From Salipaludibacillus neizhouensis (GTDB taxonomy: Bacteria; Bacillota; Bacilli; Bacillales; Salisediminibacteriaceae), in contig NZ_KZ614147.1 in assembly GCF_002886185.1 (NCBI RefSeq), forward strand, positions 248,001-312,000: DNA of 64,000 nt. The letters are read 5' to 3'. The position numbers and the translations under genes are program-made. Shown piece after piece: positions 80-11,620 of this stretch; the first letter of the stretch is position 1, and each line of letters begins with the position of its first letter. Under the pieces are notes generated by a model, which worked only from the letters and a program-made list of their open reading frames with translations, made no database searches and had not been told where the DNA came from.

Positions 80-1366
80 TTATGCAGCTTCCTGTAAGTT
101 ATTAAAGTGTGGAATATCACTAAGCATCTTTTCTTCACTGAACTCACACTGTTTAGTGCCTACTGTAAATAAGATTCGTATTAGTTTATTGCATATGGCA
201 ATTAAAGACGGCATTTTTTTTAACGGATTGTCTGGACGGGTCGTATAATACTCATGCAGATCTTTAAAGGCTTGGTTCTTAGCGACTAACGGCATTACAA
301 CTCGAAAGAGGAGAGCTCTGAGCTTCTTTCTCCCTCGTTTTGTAATGGTTGTGCGTCCTTTATGAAGTCCTGATGTATTTTCCCGTAAGTTTAGTCCAGC
401 TAGTTTAATAATTTGTTTTGGATGAGAATAGTTTCTTAGATCGCCTACTTCAGCTAAAAATGCAGCGACCGTATCTTTCCCTATTCCTGTGATTGCCACC
501 ATATTATGAACACCAGGAACTTGTTTAAGCAATTCATCTAAATGAGCATCTAGTTCTTCGAACTTTTCTTTCAATAAGTCATATTGAGCTAATAAGGTTT
601 TAAGCTCTAATTTAGCCATGTTATTTCCTTGTTTAATGCCGACTGAACAACAAGCCGCCTCTTTTAATCTCCTCACTCTACTTAAACCAACACCTCTTTG
701 GGCGCCCTTTTTGAGGTGTTTTAAAATTTCACCATCAGATAGTTTCAGTAGCTCATGTGGTAGTAGATTAAGCTTTAAAGTACGAAGTGCAGCTTTTCCT
801 TCCCAGTCTTTAAAGGCTGTAAAAAACTCAGGGAAATAGCGGTCTAGCCGATTGTGAATCTTACCTTGTACAGAACGTAGGTCAGTAGATAATAGCTCGC
901 GCACTTTCATTGCTCCTCGAAGTTCTGCATAAACACCTTCAGGGATACTTGGTTCAGCGTAGCGACCGTCTTTGACCAACTGTGCTATGACTTTGGCATC
1001 TTTCACGTCATTTTTTGTTGGTGAATTATCGTCTAATTCTTTGCTTTTCTTAGTGTGCAATGGATTGACCACAACACACTTGATATTTAACTCTTTTAAA
1101 TAATGTGCAAGGTTAAGCCAGTAATGTCCTGTTGGCTCCATACCAACGAAGACTTTATTCATTTGATTATCAACTTGAAGTTGTTTAATCCAACCTATTA
1201 AGCCATCAAACCCTGATTGAGTATTTTCAAAAGTAATAGATTTCCCTAGATCCATTCCTCTGAAATCCTGTGCTCTTGCGACGTGATTAAACTTTGCAAT
1301 ATCAACACCTATAATTAGTGTTTCAGCTGTGATTTGAGCAATTTTGTGATTTTGGTTATAATTCAT
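80..1366 (-). CDS. IS110-family transposase (DEDD recombinase)
   Basis: Transposase of an IS110-family insertion sequence, 428 aa from the chosen start. The N-terminal RuvC-like DEDD domain shows D22 (VDIAK), E77 (GMEPTGHYW) and D120/D123 (NDVKDAKVIA). The C-terminal Transposase_20 domain (about 290-380) carries the TSG serine motif and a GRKKLR stretch. The start is placed at the ATG after an AAGGAGGACTCACTA ribosome site rather than eight codons upstream. Family members lack terminal inverted repeats and use a structured bridge RNA from a non-coding end to choose target and donor. The gene is intact. The element's outer ends cannot be set because one lies near or beyond the left window edge. 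Family call is firm; group (IS110 versus IS1111) is not resolved. Confidence 0.93.
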   Translation of the reverse strand: MNYNQNHKIAQITAETLIIGVDIAKFNHVARAQDFRGMDLGKSITFENTQSGFDGLIGWIKQLQVDNQMNKVFVGMEPTGHYWLNLAHYLKELNIKCVVVNPLHTKKSKELDDNSPTKNDVKDAKVIAQLVKDGRYAEPSIPEGVYAELRGAMKVRELLSTDLRSVQGKIHNRLDRYFPEFFTAFKDWEGKAALRTLKLNLLPHELLKLSDGEILKHLKKGAQRGVGLSRVRRLKEAACCSVGIKQGNNMAKLELKTLLAQYDLLKEKFEELDAHLDELLKQVPGVHNMVAITGIGKDTVAAFLAEVGDLRNYSHPKQIIKLAGLNLRENTSGLHKGRTTITKRGRKKLRALLFRVVMPLVAKNQAFKDLHEYYTTRPDNPLKKMPSLIAICNKLIRILFTVGTKQCEFSEEKMLSDIPHFNNLQEAA

Positions 1367-1502
1367 TAGTGAGTCCTCCTTGGTTATCAATTAAGGGTCC
1401 TTTTGCGCGCAAAGCTTTGGACACCTCGTATCATACCAAGAGGACTCTTTTTCTATCAAACTCTAAATTCTTTAATTACAGGAATGCTCCCCGTTAGTTT
1501 AG
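1367..1502 (-). promoter_or_regulatory. IS110 upstream region: promoter and candidate bridge-RNA segment
   Basis: This 136-bp non-coding stretch precedes the transposase. It holds a promoter-like pair, TTGATA at 1454-1459 and TATGAT at 1430-1435 with an 18-bp spacer. Downstream are folding segments: CCTCTTGG opposed to ACGAGG, and a TTTGCGCGCAAA palindrome near 1404 flanked by GTCC and GGAC. In IS110-group elements the bridge RNA comes from the non-coding end upstream of the transposase, so this is the natural candidate. It is short for such an RNA, and no guide loops were assigned. The promoter is seen in the sequence; the RNA is inference. Confidence 0.35.
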
Positions 1503-3510: not shown

Positions 3511-3699
3511 ATTGATACTTCCAATTACTTTACGAACATCAGCATTCGCAAGAGAATTCCAATGTGAAATCCAATGCGTTTCGAAATGTGAATTTCTTTA
3601 TTAATCTCTGAGCTTTTTAATCTTGATTAATAGATGCTGAGGATAACTTAAAACCATAAATCAAATAATCATTGTAAGATGAGCAAACCTCAAATCTAC

Positions 3700-4020
3700 T
3701 TATTTCATAAATACTTCAATTAACTCAAAAAGCTTCTTTTTATCTTTTTCGGATAAATTCTCTCCTTTATACTTTAGCGGGCGATACTTTAAATTATTTA
3801 GTTCAATTTCTTTTGATATTTCCTCATCATTTAATCCAACTAAGAAATCCAAGGAGACATTGAAAAAATTTGCTATTTTAATCAAGTTGTCTATTGGTGG
3901 TGTTCGATCTCCTAGCTCATAGCTAGTTATTTGACTTTTATTCAGTTCTAACTTATCCGCTAACTCTTTTTGACTCAAATTTATTTCTTTTCTTAACATT
4001 GAAACCTTTTTTCCTATCAT
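3700..4020 (-). CDS. XRE/Cro-CI family HTH transcriptional regulator (candidate repressor)
   Basis: Small DNA-binding protein of 106 aa. Residues 1-60 are an HTH_3 fold, with the recognition helix around LELNKSQITSYELGDRTPP, a signature of phage and integrative-element repressors. The C-terminal 40 residues are charged and short, so there is no LexA-like peptidase domain. The ATG is preceded by AAGGTGAT. It is transcribed away from another HTH gene at 4158, with 137 bp between them, an arrangement typical of lysogeny switches. By analogy it would silence the rightward promoter in that gap. Inference: the target is the perfect inverted repeat at 4091-4131. Confidence 0.85.
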   Translation of the reverse strand: MIGKKVSMLRKEINLSQKELADKLELNKSQITSYELGDRTPPIDNLIKIANFFNVSLDFLVGLNDEEISKEIELNNLKYRPLKYKGENLSEKDKKKLFELIEVFMK

Positions 4021-4080
4021 CTATATCACCTTCTCTTTCTATTCTAATCGAAACGAAGCTTATTAACACGGACTAAATGT

Positions 4081-4131
4081 TTGACATAATACTAAAAGTG
4101 AACTAATATTTAATATAAGTTCACTTTTAGT
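4081..4131 (+). promoter_or_regulatory. Promoter overlapping a perfect 14-bp inverted-repeat operator
   Basis: A consensus-like promoter reads rightward: TTGACA at 4081-4086, a 17-bp spacer and TAATAT at 4104-4109. A perfect inverted repeat, ACTAAAAGTGAACT at 4091-4104 and its complement at 4118-4131, covers the spacer, the edge of the -10 box and the likely transcription start. A dimeric repressor bound here would block the promoter. Either flanking HTH protein could be that repressor. Confidence 0.8.
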
Positions 4132-4157
4132 GAATAAAGAAAGGGATGATTATATAT

Positions 4158-4541
4158 ATGCATAATACAATTTATACTTACAAAGACGTTTCATCGGATG
4201 TTAGCCGTAAATTATTTGATCTAAGAAAATCACACAATTTATCTCAGAGACAAATAGCTAAAGCTATAGGACATAACCAATCTCATATTAATATGTTGGA
4301 AACGGGAAAACGCGAATTAACACTCGAAACGTTATACAAGTTTGCAGTTTTCTATGATGTCTCAATGAGTGACCTACTAGCTATAACTAATAAAACTTCT
4401 ACTGTCACTGAAGAACCGTCAGAAATGCAAAAACTAATTAATGAACCTTCTGTACGAAATCTACTAACAAAAGCAACACTAGAAGAATTAAAGTTGTTAG
4501 CACGAATTTATCTATCTAGTAGGAATGTCGCTATTGAATAA
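4158..4541 (+). CDS. XRE-family HTH regulator, first gene of the rightward operon
   Basis: DNA-binding protein of about 127 aa. An HTH_3 domain spans roughly residues 15-70 (LSQRQIAKAIGHNQSHINML is the helix-turn-helix). A 50-residue tail follows, ending in a helical LTKATLEELKLLARIYL segment. Two starts are possible; the ATG at 4158 fits the AAAGGGATGAT ribosome site better than the ATG at 4146. The next gene overlaps its 3' end by 17 bp, so the pair is probably translationally coupled. It may be an antitoxin-like or activator partner of that gene, or the Cro-like half of the switch. The fold is clear; the role is inferred. Confidence 0.82.
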   Translation: MHNTIYTYKDVSSDVSRKLFDLRKSHNLSQRQIAKAIGHNQSHINMLETGKRELTLETLYKFAVFYDVSMSDLLAITNKTSTVTEEPSEMQKLINEPSVRNLLTKATLEELKLLARIYLSSRNVAIE

Positions 4542-5166
4542 TAATGTGGATCCTCAAATAAACCTAGTCAGCAAAAATGTAATAGAACTCGTTCGATCTT
4601 TAATACGTTATCACACTGAATCCCTCACAGAAAAACAACTAAACTTTATTCTTTATGAAGTATTTGGTGAAACAGGAAAAATATTTTCGGGTAACATTTC
4701 TACTTTCTTCGAGCACAAAGAAGAATATGATCGGCAATATCACTTAGGTCATGTATACTTATTGCATTTTCTTAACTACGATATTGCAAATGGCTATGAG
4801 TATTATCTCGGTCAGACTCGACGTAAAATAGACATACGCATAAAAGAACATGAAAGGGATTATGAGAGTGCTGTTGTTTTAGTAGACACGATAGAAAGCC
4901 TCAATCCTTTCTTAACGGAAACACTAATCACCAATCTATGGGACAGTAAATCGAAGCGCACGATAAAAAAAGGCAGTAACTATCCCTCAAGCTTATTCAA
5001 CCTAACAAATTACGACCTAGGATGGTTTAAGAGTAAAAAAAAGTTTAGCATGGTGATAAATGACTCTATTCAATATTCAAAGCCCTTACTAGAAGACTCT
5101 ATTCGCCCATTTGTTGAACAGATTAGTACTCTAATTAACCGTATTAAAACACAAGGATCTAATTAA
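4525..5166 (+). CDS. GIY-YIG-like nuclease domain protein, coupled to HTH gene
   Basis: Unrecognised protein of 213 aa with a pattern like a divergent GIY-YIG nuclease. GHVYL at 75-79 and YYLGQT at 93-98 correspond to the two signature strands. Arg105 and His109 in RIKEHE fit the catalytic helix, and Glu132 in FLTETLI fits the metal-binding glutamate. The first 70 residues are helical and the last 60 basic (KSKKKF), possibly nucleic-acid contacts. The gene begins inside the preceding HTH gene. In many integrative elements this slot holds an ImmA-type protease or a toxin, so a toxin, defence or element-control nuclease is plausible. The domain assignment is by eye and the function is not known. 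Confidence 0.6.
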   Translation: MSLLNNNVDPQINLVSKNVIELVRSLIRYHTESLTEKQLNFILYEVFGETGKIFSGNISTFFEHKEEYDRQYHLGHVYLLHFLNYDIANGYEYYLGQTRRKIDIRIKEHERDYESAVVLVDTIESLNPFLTETLITNLWDSKSKRTIKKGSNYPSSLFNLTNYDLGWFKSKKKFSMVINDSIQYSKPLLEDSIRPFVEQISTLINRIKTQGSN

Positions 5167-5256
5167 GAGTAACAATGGGAGAAATTATCAATACAATTTC
5201 TATAGTTAAATTAAATTCGAGCTTAAACCATTAATACTATTGAAACTAAGACAAGA

Positions 5257-5376
5257 GGTTAATTGGGTTAATTAGGTTAATCACATTTATATTATAGATT
5301 ATATTTTATACTTAATATCATAAATTATTATTAAACTTTAATATATAAACCATTAACCCTGTTAACCCTGTTAACC
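5257..5376. other. Candidate replication origin: 3+3 inverted 9-bp iterons around an AT-rich core
   Basis: Three head-to-tail copies of GGTTAATTR start at 5257, 5266 and 5275. Three copies of the same heptad in the opposite orientation have their TTAACC cores at 5353, 5362 and 5371. Period is exactly 9 bp on both sides. Between them lie about 70 bp that are roughly 90% A+T, suitable for melting. The locus is directly downstream of the helicase gene of the element. This layout, two iteron sets flanking an AT-rich region beside a D5/SF3-type Rep gene, is the one described for staphylococcal pathogenicity island origins. Function here is inferred. Confidence 0.75.
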
Positions 5377-5386
5377 TTATCACTAG

Positions 5387-5440
5387 AAAAATAAAAATAG
5401 AAGACAACCAAAGCCATTGCGACTTTGTTGCCTTCTATTT
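5387..5440 (-). terminator. Intrinsic terminator of the leftward replication operon
   Basis: AAATAGAAG at 5395-5403 pairs with CTTCTATTT at 5432-5440, extended by CAAC/GTTG and AAAG/CTTT. On the minus strand the stem is followed by T-rich sequence (TTTTTATTTTT). It sits four bases past the helicase stop codon and ends leftward transcription before the iterons. Confidence 0.8.
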
Positions 5441-5443
5441 CTC

Positions 5444-6768
5444 TTAGATCGTAGTATTAGTATTCAAGGTCAATCCAACCATAAATCGTTTATTCTTTGC
5501 TCCGACCTTCTTTTTAAACCCCCTTTCTTCTAGTGAAGCAATAAATTCTGTCTTTGTTAAAACAGATTCGTTATTAGTTGCTCGAAAACTTTTATATTGC
5601 TCATACAGTACTTTAATTTCTACATTAACAAGATTAGCTATTGAGCACATTTCATCTAGAAATTGTTTGAGTGGATCCATGTCTTCTCTATACTTGTTTA
5701 CTTCCTGCATAATCGATTCAGGCTCATTTAGCCCTTCTTGTTTCCACAATTTGAAGCCGTCTACTGCCCACTTTAGAATTCCCTGTTGTTCACTTCTAAG
5801 CTTATCAGAGAGATTCCGATCTTTTTTCTCCGTTTCTAGATTCATATTAAAAGGGATGATCCTGAGTCTTCGCCATATTCCTTCATCATTACCTAGTATG
5901 ACAGGTTTGTAATTTGAGCTAAAGAAAATCTTGAATTCCGGTTTAAACTCAAAGTATTCTTTTCTTAGGAACCTAGCTGTAACTTTGTCTCCTCCCGTTA
6001 GTTGTTTAACCTGCGCCTCCGCTAAAACTTTACCTTTTTCAGATTCAACTGCTACAACAAAACGTGTTTTATTTAGTCTTGCAATATCACTATTTATTGT
6101 ATTTTCATATTGCTTTGTTATAAATGTTTCTGGATTAGTCTGTTTAGCATATCCACCTAAAATATCTTGAATAGCCTCTATAAACTTTGATTTTCCATTT
6201 CCCCCATTACCTATTAAGAAAAAGAGAACTTCTTCTGAGGTATTAGCAGATAACGAGTATCCTATTGCTTTCTGAACAAAGTGTATAAGTTCATAATCTG
6301 TTTCACCTAACTTGTTAATAAAAACCTCCTTCAGAAACTTCTCCCATCTATCAGCTTTCGCATTCGGATAATAATCTACCGGTGCAATTTTAGTAATATA
6401 CTTTGATGGATCATGTGGCAGTAGGTTTCCAGTTTTTAAGTCGATAATTCCATTGTTAACATTCAACAAGTCTGGGTCTACATCTGGCTAATCGTTTACT
6501 ACACTTACCATAGGCTTAAGATCTTGAATGCTGTGTATTCGAAGACTTCTAGTCTCACAACGTTCTGCCCATTTAAACATTGCTTTTCTATAATCATCAT
6601 TATCAACTCTTTTAGCTTCTTGATAAATTAGACTAAATGTCCGGTTTGTAATGGTTTCGATCTCTTTTTTTCGATATTCAACCCATCTTTTTCCAGACCA
6701 TACTAGCCAACCTCGTTCATTGCAGAACGAATTTTATATTCATCCCTCTGAATCTCTTGGGCTATCAT
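5444..6768 (-). pseudogene. D5/P4-type SF3 helicase (Rep), broken by a frameshift and an amber stop
   Basis: The reading frame from 6469 encodes 341 aa of a D5-type superfamily 3 helicase: LLNVNNGIIDL (D5_N region), Walker A GNGGNGKS at 87-94, motif C FFSSN, and the arginine-finger segment RRLRIIPF. Upstream the homology continues (ERGWLVWSGKRWVEYR and on) but is interrupted by an in-frame TAG at 6488-6490. Before that, the likely start ATG at 6768 (MIAQEIQRDEY) is in a different frame that stops at 6703-6705. So at least one indel and one nonsense change separate start from ATPase. The protein would initiate replication at the adjacent iterons. Sequencing error or translation of the 341-aa part from TTG cannot be excluded. 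Confidence 0.75.
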
Positions 6769-6784
6769 TGGTGGTTTTACCCAC

Positions 6785-6928
6785 CTAGCCAACTAGTTTT
6801 CTTATATGGTCCAACTGTGACCGTGTGAAGGTGAAGTCTAAATCTTCTAAAACAATAGCCGTTTCACCAGAGTTATATTTCATGTGGTAGTTGATGGAGT
6901 CGAGTGCTTTTTCTTCTGAACTTCTCAT
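6785..6928 (-). CDS. Small hypothetical protein (47 aa)
   Basis: A 47-aa frame starting MRSSEEKALDSINYHMKYN and ending LDHIRKLVG. Its ATG overlaps the stop of the preceding gene in an ATGA quartet, strong evidence that it is translated as part of the leftward operon. It is predicted mostly helical and acidic. No family recognised. It ends 16 bp before the helicase start. Typical of small phage or satellite genes of unknown function. Confidence 0.55.
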   Translation of the reverse strand: MRSSEEKALDSINYHMKYNSGETAIVLEDLDFTFTRSQLDHIRKLVG

Positions 6929-7089
6929 ACTTTTTCTACCAAGTGTTTGTATTTTCGGTCGAATCGTTCTATGGATTTCTTTCTCAATTCCTTCGCACCC
7001 TCACAATTACAACTGATCAATCGATAAGCACCTAAGAAAGCATCTTCAACTATTTTCCCTTGGTCATTACATTTATCGCACTTAATCAT
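6925..7089 (-). CDS. Small zinc-ribbon-like phage protein (54 aa)
   Basis: A 54-aa frame, MIKCDKCNDQGKIVEDAF at the start, with a CxxC pair (C4, C7) and a CxC pair in ISCNC (C27, C29). The four cysteines can form a zinc-binding knuckle, like that in the N-terminus of the adjacent DnaC-like gene. It overlaps that gene by four bases (ATGA) and the next small gene by four bases. Comparable small zinc proteins occur beside phage helicase loaders. Specific function unknown. Confidence 0.6.
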   Translation of the reverse strand: MIKCDKCNDQGKIVEDAFLGAYRLISCNCEGAKELRKKSIERFDRKYKHLVEKV

Positions 7090-7880
7090 GACAAACCCCT
7101 CAGTCTGTGGTTGAGTTTCTTTCGGTCACCCTTTACTACCACGATGAACTTCTTGCACATTTCGTATATCCGGCTTGCTAGTGCTTCGTCTAATTCGAAC
7201 ATGTCATCAATAATTAGTTCTGACGAGATAAGGACGGGCATATGATTCAAGTATCGGTGGTTGATGACCGAGTACATTTGTTCTAATTGCCATTCTGTAG
7301 CGCGTGGCGTACCCTTTACCGGCTTGAATAAGTCATCTACGAATAGCACGTCCACTTTTTTCATACGGTGTATCTTTGCTTCCAACTTTTGAAAGTCATC
7401 CTTCAAGTCGCTAAATCCTTCTACATAAGGGAAGTAGAGGACAGATACATTTTTACGCATAAGGTTGTTGGATACTGCCATGAGTATGTGCGTCTTCCCT
7501 GCGCCTGATTGGCCTAACAAAGCTATGCTGTTACCTCTGTCTTCTCGTATGTCTTTAAATTCTTTGAGGTACGACATCGCACATTGATACATGTCTTTTA
7601 TTTGAGAGTCTTTATCCGTTGTGTCAAAATTCTGAAATCCGAGTTTAGCAAACTCTTTCGTTATAGCGCTGTTCTTCATAATCCGTTCTGTGCGTTTTCT
7701 TTCTACACATTCGCAATCATGCCAAAACTCATAACCCTCTGCATTTTTAATAATGAATCCCATGAAATCATTACATTCTTCACACTCTATCTCTTCCGAT
7801 CCACCCTGTTCTATTGCCGAGGATGGCACCTTCTCTTTCATCCTTTGGATAACTTTTTCCATTCTTTCCATTCCATCCAT
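7086..7880 (-). CDS. DnaC/DnaI-like helicase loader ATPase
   Basis: AAA+ ATPase of 264 aa, related to phage DnaC and Bacillus DnaI, which load the replicative helicase onto DNA. The N-terminus carries a zinc-binding pattern (C33, C36, C56, C58). Walker A is GQSGAGKT at 123-130, and Walker B is VLFVDD at 178-183. A sensor region ISSELIIDDMF and a C-terminal SRIYEMC segment follow. The start ATG has AAAGGGTGAT upstream. It overlaps the preceding replication gene by 101 bp, more than expected, and the next small gene by 4 bp. In the element it would recruit the host helicase to the origin. Confidence 0.88.
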   Translation of the reverse strand: MDGMERMEKVIQRMKEKVPSSAIEQGGSEEIECEECNDFMGFIIKNAEGYEFWHDCECVERKRTERIMKNSAITKEFAKLGFQNFDTTDKDSQIKDMYQCAMSYLKEFKDIREDRGNSIALLGQSGAGKTHILMAVSNNLMRKNVSVLYFPYVEGFSDLKDDFQKLEAKIHRMKKVDVLFVDDLFKPVKGTPRATEWQLEQMYSVINHRYLNHMPVLISSELIIDDMFELDEALASRIYEMCKKFIVVVKGDRKKLNHRLRGLS

Positions 7881-8616
7881 TTACATCACCCTTTTGATTT
7901 AGGTATCCTTCAAACTTAGAACTAAATAACGTGTCTGGTCGAAGGTACTTACTCATATCATCTTTCTTTAGCCATTCACCTGATTTCACATCGATCACTC
8001 GTTTAAAGTCCTCTAGTCTGAATCCTTCGTTCCATCTTGCTTTTATCAAGTCTTTCGTTTTATTAGTCGTATGTTTATATTTAGATGAAGTCGCATCGTT
8101 GAGATAGGTGACTATCTCGACATAAGGTATATCATTACTTGGTTTATCAATACTTAGTTCATCAATACTTAGTTCATCAGTACTTAGTTCATCAGTACTT
8201 AGTTCATCAGTACTTAGTTCATCAGTACTTAGTAGTTGCGGATTATCCATTGATGGTTTATCCATTGATGGTTTATCCATGTATGGTTTATCCACTAGTG
8301 GTTTATCCATGTATGGTTTATCCCTATATGGTGTTTCAAATACTGACGTTTCCCAATCAAGTTTACCTTCACTATTTCGCTTGCGGTATCTCTTCATATA
8401 TCCCATTAACTTCAATTCTTTAATGGCTGATTTCAAGGAGTCTTTACCGTCTCTAGCATGTTTTTCTAACTCGGTATCATAAAATGTCCAGTCATCAGGC
8501 ATGGATAACATATAAGCAAGTAACCCTTTTGCCTTCCAAGTTAATTCAACGTCATTTAATGCGGTTCGATTCATTACAACGTAGTTATTTTCTTTTTTAT
8601 CTCTGTAGATGCCCAT
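7780..8616 (-). CDS. Phage-type replication protein (wHTH plus Phg_2220_C-like domain)
   Basis: Replication initiator or loader partner of 278 aa. Residues 1-95 form a winged helix of the helix_turn_helix_36 type (LTWKAKGLLAYMLSMPDDW). A low-complexity linker of repeated MDKP and STDEL units fills about 100-165. The C-terminal segment (YLNDATSSKYKHTTNKTKDL to YLRPDTLFSSKFEGYLNQK) matches the Phg_2220_C pattern. The final 35 residues are Gly/Arg/Trp-rich, overlap the DnaC-like gene, and look like readthrough after a lost stop. The ATG at 8616 is chosen because AGAGGTGA precedes it; a GTG three codons upstream overlaps that site. Such proteins usually pair with a DnaC-like loader, as here. Confidence 0.85.
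   Translation of the reverse strand: MGIYRDKKENNYVVMNRTALNDVELTWKAKGLLAYMLSMPDDWTFYDTELEKHARDGKDSLKSAIKELKLMGYMKRYRKRNSEGKLDWETSVFETPYRDKPYMDKPLVDKPYMDKPSMDKPSMDNPQLLSTDELSTDELSTDELSTDELSIDELSIDKPSNDIPYVEIVTYLNDATSSKYKHTTNKTKDLIKARWNEGFRLEDFKRVIDVKSGEWLKKDDMSKYLRPDTLFSSKFEGYLNQKGDVNGWNGKNGKSYPKDEREGAILGNRTGWIGRDRV
8145..8335 (-). repeat. Two 15-bp minisatellites within the replication gene
   Basis: About six copies of TTCATCARTACTTAG (roughly 8145-8231) and about six of TTTATCCATNNATGG (roughly 8247-8335) run in tandem. A 15-bp unit keeps frame, encoding repeating STDEL and MDKP pentapeptides. The array forms the linker between the two domains. Similar Asp/Thr/Asn linker repeats are common in this protein family; copy number is probably strain-variable. 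Confidence 0.85.
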
Positions 8617-8706
8617 TGTCCTCACCTCTGTATATAATCCTTTTAATGTGGTAAAATGTAGTTAAGAATGTTTTAGCTTGCGCCCTCTTACTTGGTGGTT
8701 AGAGGG

Positions 8707-8856
8707 TTATTTTGTATACCTTTCAAAACAGTGTGAATTACAAAAACTTGGATTGTCTTTCGGGTACGAGCTTTCATACTTTGTCGATTCACCACAATTC
8801 TTACAAATGATTGGTGGTTCTTCCCATTTCGCTTCAAACAATATGATATCCTCCAC
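8707..8856 (-). CDS. Small zinc-finger-like protein (about 49 aa)
   Basis: A short frame from a GTG at 8856 reads EDIILFEAKWEEPPIICKNC and then a second Cys pair, FCNSHC, before TAA at 8707. Two CxxC motifs suggest a zinc ribbon, and this composition is typical of coding sequence. It overlaps the end of the primase remnant by 23 bp in another frame. The start is uncertain: no convincing ribosome site is seen, and the true 5' end may have been lost when the primase gene was deleted. Function unknown. Confidence 0.45.
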   Translation of the reverse strand: MEDIILFEAKWEEPPIICKNCGESTKYESSYPKDNPSFCNSHCFERYTK

Positions 8857-9251
8857 CGGAGTCCACAATCATTGTCGGCTTTATCCCAAAGCTTTCTAGA
8901 AGGGATAAACCTTCTTTTTTTTGCGGTAAATTAATTGCTGAATGCTTCCCATCAGAAGTATCTATATCAATCCATACTGCTGGAATAGAAAGTACTTCAT
9001 CATTTCCACCTCTAGAATAACCAATTGGTTTACTTTGCCTCAAACCGATATACATGGTGCTTAAGTTTAAGCTTCTGGATCATCATAGATGCTTCATATG
9101 ATTTATCGATCTTAAATGAGTAAGATTCTAAAAACTTGCTTGGTCCTTTGTTGCCACTTTCATCGATAAGAGCAGGACTTATAACAACGTATCCCTCTTG
9201 TCCTTCATATAGCTCTTTCAAAAAACTTGTAGAATCTATCAATGACTTCAT
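8834..9251 (-). pseudogene. Remnant of an AEP (PrimPol-type) DNA primase, frameshifted and truncated
   Basis: N-terminal part of an archaeo-eukaryotic-type primase split over two frames. The first frame (from ATG 9251) encodes 73 aa ending LKLKHHVYRFEAK. The second resumes as YIGLRQSKPIGYSRGG and includes the catalytic DxD in AVWIDIDTSDG and the SGGGYH motif. Homology would be continuous if TATAT near 9050 were TATATAT, so a 2-bp deletion in a TA run is the simplest explanation. The frame then ends right after GGGYHIV, so the rest of the primase domain is missing. It would have primed replication of the element. Now probably inactive. Confidence 0.7.
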
Positions 9252-9331
9252 CCTCTCTAAATAACTTAAGACTATTAAAAATAGTTAGTCTTCACATTCT
9301 TATCATCTAGCCCGCCAGCATATCATTTTTG

Positions 9332-9598
9332 TTATTTCTTATGCTTATTCATAAATGCAGTGATGTCCTCTCGATCGATTAAAAATTTTCCGCGAATTTC
9401 AATAATTGGCATTTCAAGCTTTTTTAAATGTGTAAAGGAAATTCCAATATATTCGCATGCCTCTTTCTTTGTCATATACCGTTTATGTCCTGCATGCTCC
9501 TTAGCAGTTTCAAATGCTTCTTTACTTAGTTGATAAAACAAATTATAGTAACTCGATTTAAATTCATCTGAAATTTGTAGTGGGATATACTCTTCCAT
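9332..9598 (-). CDS. Excisionase-like HTH DNA-binding protein
   Basis: An 88-aa protein with a MerR-like winged helix of the excisionase (HTH_17) type. MTKKEACEYIGISFTHLKKL is the helix-turn-helix, followed by the wing PIIEIRGKFLIDREDITAFM. It is divergent from the integrase and separated by 368 bp, the usual partner arrangement for recombination directionality factors. The ribosome site AAAAGGAGGTGAGAAA is strong. It is the first gene of the leftward replication block, so excision and replication are probably co-expressed. Role inferred from fold and position. Confidence 0.78.
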   Translation of the reverse strand: MEEYIPLQISDEFKSSYYNLFYQLSKEAFETAKEHAGHKRYMTKKEACEYIGISFTHLKKLEMPIIEIRGKFLIDREDITAFMNKHKK

Positions 9599-9966
9599 TT
9601 TCTCACCTCCTTTTACCTAGTAATAAAGTAGATATATTTCACCTCCTTTATCTATATTACTAAAAGTAATATTAACTGCTATAAACTAATTGTAGTTGCT
9701 TGTAACTACTATTAATAAAGGATTAATCAGATATCTTTAAGTGATCGTTTCCTTATTACCAATATAATTGATTATCATTTGAATTTACAACTAGATATTG
9801 CTATATTTCATAAATCAAGGCAAAAGTCCCAAGCTGTATACATTGATAAAAGTATGGATATTACTGTAAACTATTATTTAATAACATTGGATCTATTGCA
9901 CACTTAGTGAATTCTATGTTATTCATTCCTCTCCTTTTATTGCTCGCCAGCATGAGGAGGAGAAAA
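9599..9966. promoter_or_regulatory. Divergent int/xis control region
   Basis: No gene seen in this 368-bp AT-rich gap. Near 9600-9660 a roughly 27-bp imperfect direct repeat contains two leftward ribosome sites (GGAGGTGA), one directly before the excisionase-like gene and one 38 bp further upstream. GTAGTT/AACTAC forms a small hairpin near 9690-9710. The region must carry promoters for both directions, but no consensus pair stands out. Confidence 0.5.
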
Positions 9967-11127
9967 TTGGCTAAGATCACTAAATACGAAAAGAAGAATG
10001 GGACAGCTTATATGATAAAGGGATATATAGGTATTAACCAAAAAACTGGTGAAAAAGTTCAAACAACAAAGATGGGATTTAAAACTAAAAAAGAGGCTAA
10101 ATTATTTTTAACTCAGATGCAAAGGGATTTAGAAGACTATGGGGGCTTTACAAATGAAAATATTACATTTCAAGAAGCCTTTGAAGAATGGTTTACTCAA
10201 CATTCAAAAGAAGTTAAGCCTACTACTGAATATGCTATTAAGTCTAAGTTCAACAGAATCTTACCTGAATTCGGACACCTCAAAATTAAAAATATCTCAG
10301 GGACTGATTGCCAGAGAGTTATAAACAAATGGGCACTTGAGTTAAAAACTTTTAAAGACTATAAGATACAAGCTAACTTGGTCTTTAATTATGCCTTGCG
10401 TATGGAATTCATTAATAGGAATCCCATGGATAAGGTTACATTACCTAAGAGGAAACAAGAAACAACCATTGTCCTTGGGGGTGATAGTAAGGAGAGATTT
10501 TATACTAAAGACGTCCTGAAGCTATTTTTGAAAGTGATAAAACATAAACCTATGCCTTATACCATGTTTCACCTTCTCGGATATACAGGAGCTCGTAAGG
10601 GGGAATTACAATCGCTTCATTGGTCTGACATAGATTTTCATTTAAAAACTATTGAATTCAATAAGACATTAAGTACTCTAAACGGCAAAAAAGAACTATG
10701 TACTCCGAAAACCAAGTCATCTTATCGTAGAATCGCAATTAGTGATCAAACAATTCATGTCCTCAAAGAATGGCGAAAAGAACAAACTGAGTTTTATAAG
10801 GAACATGCTGTTCTCTTAAAATCCGATCACTTACAACCTGTATTTACAACTTATTTTGCAAAAAGCATGGATTACTGCAGATTAGCCTACCTTAATGACC
10901 AACTGATCAGTATATACAAAGACCAACCAGACCTACCTAAAATTACTGTGCATGGTTTTAGGCACACTAATGCTAGTTTGTTGTTTGTGTCAGGAGCATC
11001 TATTAAAGATGTCCAATATCAGCTAGGTCATTCTGATATTAAAACAACGATGAATATATACACTCACGTAACAAACGAAGCAAAAGATAAAACAGCCATA
11101 CAATTCCAGAATTACATGGATGAATAG
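9967..11127 (+). CDS. int: Tyrosine site-specific recombinase (integrase)
   Basis: Integrase of 386 aa that inserts and excises the element. The N-terminus (1-58) resembles an AP2-like arm-binding domain (AYMIKGYIG, KMGFKTKKEA). A SAM-like core-binding domain follows (65-160). The catalytic domain shows Arg210 (GYTGARKGEL), a lysine in PKTKSS (248-250), His329-x-x-Arg332 (HGFRHT), His355 (LGHSD) and the nucleophile Tyr365 (NIYTH). The start is a TTG at 9967 preceded by AGGAGGAGAAAA; upstream in-frame codons lack a ribosome site. It faces the rpsI 3' end, 100 bp away, as in elements that use that gene as target. It appears intact. Confidence 0.93.
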   Translation: MAKITKYEKKNGTAYMIKGYIGINQKTGEKVQTTKMGFKTKKEAKLFLTQMQRDLEDYGGFTNENITFQEAFEEWFTQHSKEVKPTTEYAIKSKFNRILPEFGHLKIKNISGTDCQRVINKWALELKTFKDYKIQANLVFNYALRMEFINRNPMDKVTLPKRKQETTIVLGGDSKERFYTKDVLKLFLKVIKHKPMPYTMFHLLGYTGARKGELQSLHWSDIDFHLKTIEFNKTLSTLNGKKELCTPKTKSSYRRIAISDQTIHVLKEWRKEQTEFYKEHAVLLKSDHLQPVFTTYFAKSMDYCRLAYLNDQLISIYKDQPDLPKITVHGFRHTNASLLFVSGASIKDVQYQLGHSDIKTTMNIYTHVTNEAKDKTAIQFQNYMDE

Positions 11128-11149
11128 AAAAGTGGGTGAAAAGTGGGTG
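11128..11149 (+). repeat. 11-bp tandem direct repeat after int, candidate arm-type site
   Basis: AAAAGTGGGTG occurs twice with no gap, starting on the base after the integrase stop codon. Short direct repeats next to the recombination site are typical binding sites for the N-terminal domain of lambda-type integrases. The crossover core is expected between here and the rpsI stop codon. No matching core was recognised at the left of the window. Confidence 0.5.
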
Positions 11150-11166
11150 AATTTATAATCAACCAC

Positions 11167-11205
11167 GAAAAAACCCTCCTTGCTCGCAATGAGCAAAGAG
11201 GGTTG
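11167..11205 (-). terminator. Intrinsic terminator of rplM-rpsI
   Basis: On the minus strand AACCCTCTTTGCTC and GAGCAAGGAGGGTT form a 14-bp stem with a 5-base loop (about 11171-11204), followed directly by TTTT. It lies 23 bp after the rpsI stop. It separates the ribosomal operon from the oppositely transcribed integrase. Confidence 0.9.
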
Positions 11206-11227
11206 AACCCTTGATATAAAAGGGATA

Positions 11228-11620
11228 TTAACGCTTTGAGAACTGAGGAGCACGACGTGCACCTTTAAGTCCGTATTTCTTACGCTCTTTCATACGAGAG
11301 TCACGAGTTAAGAAACCAGCTTTTTTAAGTGATCCGCGGTATTCTGGATCTGCAATAAGAAGTGCACGAGCAACGCCGTGACGGATTGCTCCAGCTTGAC
11401 CAGTGTAACCTCCACCTTCAACTTTAACAAGGATATCGTACGTACCCTCTGTTTGTGTTTCATTAAGTGGTTGTTTAACGATAACTTTTAATGTTTCAAG
11501 GTCAAAGTACTCGTCGATGTTTCTATTGTTGATCACGATCTTACCATCTCCAGGTACGAGACGTACACGTGCGACAGAGTTCTTACGACGACCTGTTCCA
11601 TAATATTCAACTTGTGCCAA
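11228..11620 (-). CDS. rpsI: 30S ribosomal protein S9
   Basis: S9 of the small subunit head, 130 aa, the usual length. It starts [19 protein letters not shown], and its conserved C-terminal tail [11 protein letters not shown] reaches toward the P-site tRNA. It follows rplM by 19 bp with an AGGAGGG ribosome site and shares the L13 leader. The complete tail shows that integration next to it did not damage the gene. In several Firmicutes the 3' end of rpsI is an integration target, which fits the neighbouring integrase. Confidence 0.97.

What the first reader, a model, noticed from the sequence alone, without database searches (positions are those of the whole stretch)
5257..5376. Symmetric iteron origin flanking an AT-rich core
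Seen directly: three 9-bp GGTTAATTR repeats face three inverted copies across about 70 bp of nearly pure A+T, with exact 9-bp periodicity on both sides. It lies right after the element's helicase gene and its terminator. The layout parallels replication origins of staphylococcal pathogenicity islands, where Rep binds two iteron sets around a melting region. An island with its own replicon next to rpsI in a Bacillaceae would be a new satellite or integrative-replicative family.
Basis: partly seen in the sequence, partly recalled or inferred. Interest (0 to 1): 0.82.

Follow-up and report, generated by a model that had tools for sequence, protein, structure and literature searches.

The report
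Orphaned phage-type replication origin in island
Two facing sets of three short DNA repeats around an A/T-rich core match a layout found next to the same helicase gene in many phages and phage-like islands, so this is likely the old replication origin of a mobile island, and it is probably silent now because its starter gene is broken and a different replication module sits inside that gene.

Summary
The repeats are real: three GGTTAAY units (9-bp spacing, 5257-5283) face three inverted ones (5350-5376) across 66 bp of 92% A+T, 3' of a D5-type primase-helicase gene; the triple occurs nowhere else in the 5.5-Mb genome. Relatives carry the same layout in the same place: temperate phages phi105, A9Y and A2 (its record marks a rep_origin there) and intact 15-17 kb islands at the same rpsI site. 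Of 50 non-redundant clusters (window included), 26 reach a layout score of 2 and 11 reach 6, against 4.0% and 0% of 801 control windows. Iteron sequence tracks the helicase's C-terminal domain, as expected if that domain binds it. So the origin call is well supported by inference; a working replicon is not. The primase-helicase gene is broken, a DnaD/DnaC module with its own in-gene repeats lies in the gap, and no other homogue at E<=1e-20 is in the genome. The element is 37.9 kb with defence genes. Wider points: a 2018 paper calls this origin organisation unique to PICIs, but complete phages have it; and in many relatives a 24-bp palindrome flanks the iterons on both sides, for which I found no description. 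Binding and firing are untested.

The parts
5257..5283 (+). left iteron set, three 9-bp units GGTTAAYNN
   Evidence: sequence; 0 in 100 shuffles; unique in genome
5284..5349 (.). A/T core (92.4% A+T, 66 bp), predicted melting region
   Evidence: in 27 higher-scoring clusters (window included) the median inner gap is 71 bp and median A+T 0.80
5350..5376 (-). right iteron set, three inverted 9-bp units GGTTAAYNN
5222..5242 (+). weak candidate for the origin-flanking palindrome seen in relatives; not significant by itself
   Evidence: 3.8 bits, E 1.7, 10th of 32 listed hits in 12.5 kb; second-best place of 7.7 kb with the matrix
5409..5427 (-). terminator-like stem-loop between helicase and repeats
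   Evidence: longer arms 5390-5411 / 5424-5445
5444..6469 (-). open C-terminal part of a D5-type primase-helicase: P-loop ATPase plus predicted winged helix; gene broken upstream by an in-frame stop at about 6488-6490
   Evidence: Pfam D5_N, DUF5906, Pox_D5; phrog_1829; frames; model and fold match to SaPI5 primase-helicase
8837..9061 (-). remnant of the N-terminal part of the same kind of primase gene
   Evidence: residues 71-145 of the 839-aa primase of island L154, 31%, E 1e-9; phrog_2478; the other 5 primases tried did not match here
7780..8625 (-). DnaD-like replication initiation protein lying in the gap of the primase gene
   Evidence: phrog_428, Phg_2220_C
8131..8332 (.). two 15-bp tandem repeat arrays inside the DnaD-like gene, predicted second origin
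   Evidence: the replication gene just before the DnaC-like gene of Geobacillus phage GBSV1 also has 15-bp repeats
7086..7880 (-). DnaC-like helicase loader
   Evidence: phrog_50, IstB_IS21
9332..9598 (-). excisionase-like HTH protein
   Evidence: phrog_668 and phrog_66; 45-64% identical proteins beside the integrases of the other rpsI islands
9907..11127 (+). tyrosine integrase next to rpsI
   Evidence: Pfam and PHROGs; 44-58% relatives in 5 other genomes of the family
11125..11151 (+). 11-bp tandem repeats, integrase-arm-like; a matching stretch lies just inside the other end
11168..11295 (.). right attachment duplication (rpsI 3' end); partner 37.9 kb to the left, outside the window
   Evidence: 124 of 128 identical to contig C2:221278-221405

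Best explanation
This is likely the former replication origin of a mobile island, of the type that a D5-type primase-helicase would open by binding facing iterons around an A/T core, and it is probably silent now because the gene for that protein is broken. Shown: the arrays, their place 3' of the helicase, the same layout in relatives, the broken primase-helicase gene, the DnaD/DnaC module in its gap, and the 37.9-kb element bounded by rpsI duplications. Inferred: the C-terminal winged-helix domain binds the two iteron sets, probably as two hexamers (the model cited for SaPI Rep), the A/T core melts, and the fused primase starts both forks. Inferred too: the DnaD/DnaC module with its in-gene repeats took over replication and left the older origin behind.
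For: Exact arrays, unique in the genome. Relatives' primase genes are followed by facing iterons around an A/T core: of 50 clusters at 90% identity (window included) 26 score >=2, 14 >=4, 11 >=6, against 4.0%, 1.0% and 0% of 801 core-bearing windows elsewhere in the same loci; the same score with direct instead of inverted copies gives 16, 1 and 0 of 50. Isolated phages score A2 12, phi105 6, A9Y 4, and the A2 record marks a rep_origin there. Iteron similarity follows C-terminal identity after allowing for the ATPase part (partial r 0.22, 3 of 2000 permutations reach it) more than the reverse (0.116, 182 of 2000); 41 of 70 clusters used. The window's iteron is closest to those of L011, L015, L129 and L058. 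Fold: predicted winged helix at the C-terminus (my reading of the listed elements), Foldseek match to SaPI5 primase-helicase, TM 0.71. In print, SaPI Rep recognises an origin directly downstream with its C-terminal domain (passages of PMC7581432). Gene breakage and module in the gap. Only one homologue at E<=1e-20 in the genome.
Against: No binding, melting or replication data. 24 of 50 clusters score below 2 and 11 of 50 have no core by my threshold, among them the Listeria cluster of 14 loci and plasmid pGEOTH02, so the layout is common but not universal. The open C-terminal part keeps its P-loop and iterons keep exact spacing, which could mean they still serve something. The module-replacement reading rests on one relative for the N-terminal remnant.
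Confidence: 0.8

Rival explanations
1. The origin still works: the shortened helicase, or an initiator brought by a visiting phage or helper, would bind the iterons and replicate the island.
For: Iterons and the helicase's ATPase and C-terminal parts are open and well kept; SaPI-type elements can have primase and initiator as separate genes (passages of PMC6092414).
Against: The gene is broken within and before the D5_N part; no second homologue at E<=1e-20 in the genome; no intact primase; a DnaD/DnaC module is present instead.
Confidence: 0.12
2. The repeats are operators for the nearby HTH regulators (3700-4020, 4146-4541) and control transcription, not replication.
For: Two HTH proteins lie within 1.6 kb; operators are often short inverted repeats.
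Against: The layout follows the D5 gene, not the regulators, across phages and islands; no promoter-like site inside the arrays in the scan.
Confidence: 0.05
3. An accident of A/T-rich sequence.
For: A loose count of facing 8-mers is reached by 11 of 200 shuffles.
Against: Exact triple arrays: 0 in 100 shuffles, unique in 5.5 Mb; same place and layout in relatives.
Confidence: 0.02

Closest known systems
Origins of phage-inducible chromosomal islands (SaPI and other PICIs)
   Same: Origin immediately 3' of the initiator gene; [quoted passage not shown] D5-type helicase whose C-terminal domain is said to recognise the origin (PMC7581432 passages).
   Different: Here the primase-helicase gene is broken, a DnaD/DnaC module lies in it, and the element is 37.9 kb. 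I did not compare with a PICI origin sequence directly.
Origins of temperate phages with a D5-type primase (phi105, vB_BteM-A9Y, Lactobacillus phage A2)
   Same: Same gene 3' neighbour, same facing layout; A9Y has the same GGTTAAT unit.
   Different: The phages have an intact primase-helicase; in relatives extra outer iterons and flanking palindromes are seen, which are weak or absent here.
Intact rpsI islands in the same bacterial family (L148, L149, L154)
   Same: Integrase and excisionase relatives beside rpsI, primase-helicase, facing repeats around a core.
   Different: Intact 785-861-aa primase-helicase; 15.2 and 17.1 kb for the two with both ends found; two carry a tail tape-measure-like protein.

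Membership tests
Origin of a D5-type primase-helicase replicon | lies immediately 3' of a D5-type helicase gene | tested here: met
   68 bp from the stop of the open part
Origin of a D5-type primase-helicase replicon | two facing iteron sets around an A/T-rich core | tested here: met
Origin of a D5-type primase-helicase replicon | initiator binds the iterons | not testable with these tools
   only indirect: iteron type tracks C-terminal domain
Origin of a D5-type primase-helicase replicon | intact primase-helicase gene to drive it | tested here: not met
   in-frame stop and missing middle part
PICI (Gram-positive type) | integrase and site-specific attachment duplication | tested here: met
PICI (Gram-positive type) | xis, then pri-rep (sometimes fused), then ori, read away from int | tested here: inconclusive
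   order xis, primase remnant, D5, ori is kept, but pri-rep is broken and interrupted
PICI (Gram-positive type) | regulators next to int, divergent from xis | tested here: inconclusive
   in L148, L149 and L154 yes by ORF order; in the window the HTH pair lies at 3700-4541, far from int
PICI (Gram-positive type) | small size (about 15 kb; size range recalled) | tested here: not met
   37.9 kb between the duplications
PICI (Gram-positive type) | phage-dependent induction and packaging | not testable with these tools
   needs phage experiments

The most novel reading that the evidence does not exclude
Origins of D5-type primase-helicases from Bacillus to Lactobacillus share a hidden second component: a near-constant 24-bp palindrome (AAACCCTTG-ATAY-type) placed in mirror image outside the two iteron sets, while the iterons themselves change. 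It would be the site where the fused primase starts the two leading strands, so iterons set specificity and the palindrome is the common start signal. The same palindrome sits at the rpsI attachment core, hinting at a shared recognition site for replication and integration.
Probability: 0.25. Interest if true: 0.72.

Novelty: new member of a known kind. Interest (0 to 1): 0.5.

Why it matters
An origin organisation that was described as unique to PICIs and used as a hint of their common descent (PMC6092414) turns out to be shared by complete temperate phages with the same primase family. It therefore marks the replication module, not the satellite lifestyle, and should not be used alone to call an element a satellite. 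The window also shows a replication module lying inside an older one while the older origin stays readable. The iteron/C-terminal-domain pairing and the flanking palindrome give direct, cheap binding tests.

Tried and rejected
Rejected: a covarying hairpin for the flanking palindrome. Native arms pair no better than swapped ones (3.83 against 3.73 of 6; 694 of 5000 permutations reach it; with G-T 391 of 5000), so I treat it as a double-strand site. No Rfam family at gathering threshold in five relatives or in window 3600-9700. A near-identity search of the L148 origin in phages found nothing. One scan of genome contigs found a single distant archaeal relative, not used further. The palindrome is not convincingly present at the window's own origin; the best window hit is at the attachment site. 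The first-look idea that the element is a plain prophage was not borne out: no phage structural gene among the ORFs that I scanned, but not every ORF of the 37.9 kb was scanned. All 10 paper searches are used. Two named the origin beside a phage primase or the palindrome, others SaPI/PICI origins (25, 71, 74, 87, 99) and Bacillus satellites or rpsI (70, 75, 88); I saw listings and, for four papers, passages or one section. None described the palindrome, but the library lacks most subscription journals.

Full report
WHAT IS THERE. Three GGTTAAY units with 9-bp spacing at 5257-5283 face three inverted ones at 5350-5376 across 66 bp of 92.4% A+T. The triple is found only here in the 5.5-Mb genome, once per strand, control 0, and not in 100 shuffles of the window. 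A looser symmetry count is weaker (11 of 200 shuffles).

NEIGHBOURHOOD. On the - strand, before the repeats, lies the open C-terminal part (341 aa, 6469-5444) of a D5-type primase-helicase (Pfam D5_N, DUF5906, Pox_D5; phrog_1829), then a terminator-like stem. The gene is broken: an in-frame stop at about 6488-6490 and a missing middle part. The 839-aa primase of a related island (L154) matches the window at 9061-8840 (residues 71-145) and 6730-5462 (residues 400-824); residues 146-399 have no match at E 0.05. The other five primases tried matched the C-terminal part only. In the gap lie a DnaD-like initiator (7780-8625) and a DnaC-like loader (7086-7880). The DnaD-like gene holds 15-bp tandem repeats at 8131-8332; the replication gene just before the DnaC-like gene of phage GBSV1 has 15-bp repeats as well. 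I infer a second origin there.

THE ELEMENT. The rpsI 3' end is duplicated, 124 of 128 bases, at window 11168-11295 and 37.9 kb to the left, outside the window, with 11-bp integrase-arm-like repeats just inside both ends. The window holds the right 11.3 kb. To the left lie AriA and AriB (PARIS), a bSEFIR protein, a SocA/Panacea protein and a truncated HsdM. No phage structural gene was seen in the ORFs scanned, which were not all ORFs.

RELATIVES AT THE SAME SITE. Among 35 genomes of the family, 6 (the own one included) have the integrase at E<=1e-60 and 5 (own included) a D5 relative at E<=1e-20. Two rpsI islands have both ends: G001, 15.2 kb, and G008, 17.1 kb, each with an intact primase-helicase (861 and 785 aa). 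A third, G312 from the wider order (839 aa), runs to a contig end. All three have facing repeats around a core 3' of that gene: 1, 0 and 0 of 200 shuffles reach the count. G012 and G017 have integrase and excisionase at rpsI but no D5 relative at that threshold.

RELATIVES BEYOND. The nearest named relatives are DNA primases of phi105, vB_BteM-A9Y and others. The A2 record marks a rep_origin directly 3' of the primase. I scored the 560 bases around the primase stop in 92 loci (80 from viral contigs, 12 others with the window), 50 clusters at 90%. 39 have a core; the inverted layout scores >=2 in 26, >=4 in 14, >=6 in 11, against 4.0%, 1.0%, 0% of 801 core-bearing windows in the same loci; the direct-orientation version gives 16, 1, 0. 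Misses are real: 24 of 50 below 2, among them phage Wrath, the Listeria cluster (14 loci; repeats are visible by eye) and pGEOTH02. The score is also blind to A/T-only words, so L004 (the G001 island) scores 0. A looser score on 115 loci, 70 clusters, was run without a null. In 27 higher-scoring clusters (window included) the spacing is mostly 8-11 bp, the median inner gap 71 bp, median A+T 0.80.

WHO BINDS. For 41 of 70 clusters (score >=6, minus five that I dropped by hand: L005r, L133, L138r, L091, L097) iteron similarity correlates with C-terminal identity given ATPase identity (partial r 0.22, 3 of 2000) more than with ATPase identity given C-terminal identity (0.116, 182 of 2000). A model of the 341-aa part (pLDDT 85.4) ends in elements that I read as a winged helix; Foldseek ranks African swine fever PrimPol chains first (TM up to 0.86) and SaPI5 primase-helicase 7ola at TM 0.71. 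SaPI Rep is reported to recognise its downstream origin through the C-terminal domain (passages of PMC7581432).

A SECOND CONSERVED PART IN RELATIVES. Outside the iterons many relatives carry an imperfect 24-bp palindrome, e.g. AAACCCTTGATACGACTGGGTTT. I picked 59 sites by eye in 35 clusters; left copies are mostly reversed (23 of 32), right ones mostly not (5 of 27 reversed), by an ad hoc rule. With a matrix trained on half of the clusters, the best place of the whole locus lies at the origin in 34 of 35 held-out clusters (2.1 expected by length) and in 8 of the 35 clusters without picked sites (2.6 expected). The first figure is favoured by my choice of clusters. There is no stem covariation. 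The same palindrome sits at the rpsI stop in the inserted loci and in some genomes without this integrase. At the window's own origin it is weak (3.8 bits, E 1.7).

COMPARISON WITH PRINT. PMC6092414 (section 6 and passages; [quoted passage not shown] Searches show it in complete temperate phages. PICI-like elements at rpsI in group B streptococci are mentioned in PMC7487436 (passages).

VERDICT. A true origin relic, by inference; an ordinary member of a known kind in an unusual state (older origin orphaned, newer module inside its gene). The value lies in the general layout and the palindrome.

Noticed in passing
L010-L017, L046-L147 (origin regions of relatives): A conserved 24-bp palindrome flanks the iteron sets in mirror image in many relatives while the iteron sequence varies; function unknown.
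   Followed up: partly
window 11203-11230; L045 3313-3340; L148 3202-3231; L149 18384-18413; L152 2249-2274; L154 5031-5057: The same palindrome sits at the rpsI stop, the attachment core, and also in some genomes without this integrase (L028, L034 by model; L030, L032 by eye).
   Followed up: partly
L026 2282-3208 and 3209-4558; L026 5014-6090; L045 5951-6427: Defence cargo in the same element: PARIS AriB/AriA, a bSEFIR protein, a SocA/Panacea protein.
   Followed up: no
L148 12587-16255; L149 6352-9909: Intact rpsI islands of 15-17 kb carry a long tail tape-measure-like protein (phrog_167 for L148; 72-73% relative in L149); no other structural gene was found among the 10 L148 ORFs scanned.
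   Followed up: partly
L150/L151 and L152: In G017 and G012 the integrase and excisionase relatives sit at rpsI without a D5 primase at E<=1e-20; neighbouring ORFs look like cargo and were not searched.
   Followed up: no
window 80-1390: A transposase-like ORF (IS110-like by recall, not searched) lies inside the 37.9-kb element.
   Followed up: no
window 8131-8332: In-frame 15-bp repeat arrays inside the DnaD-like gene, predicted origin of the newer module.
   Followed up: partly
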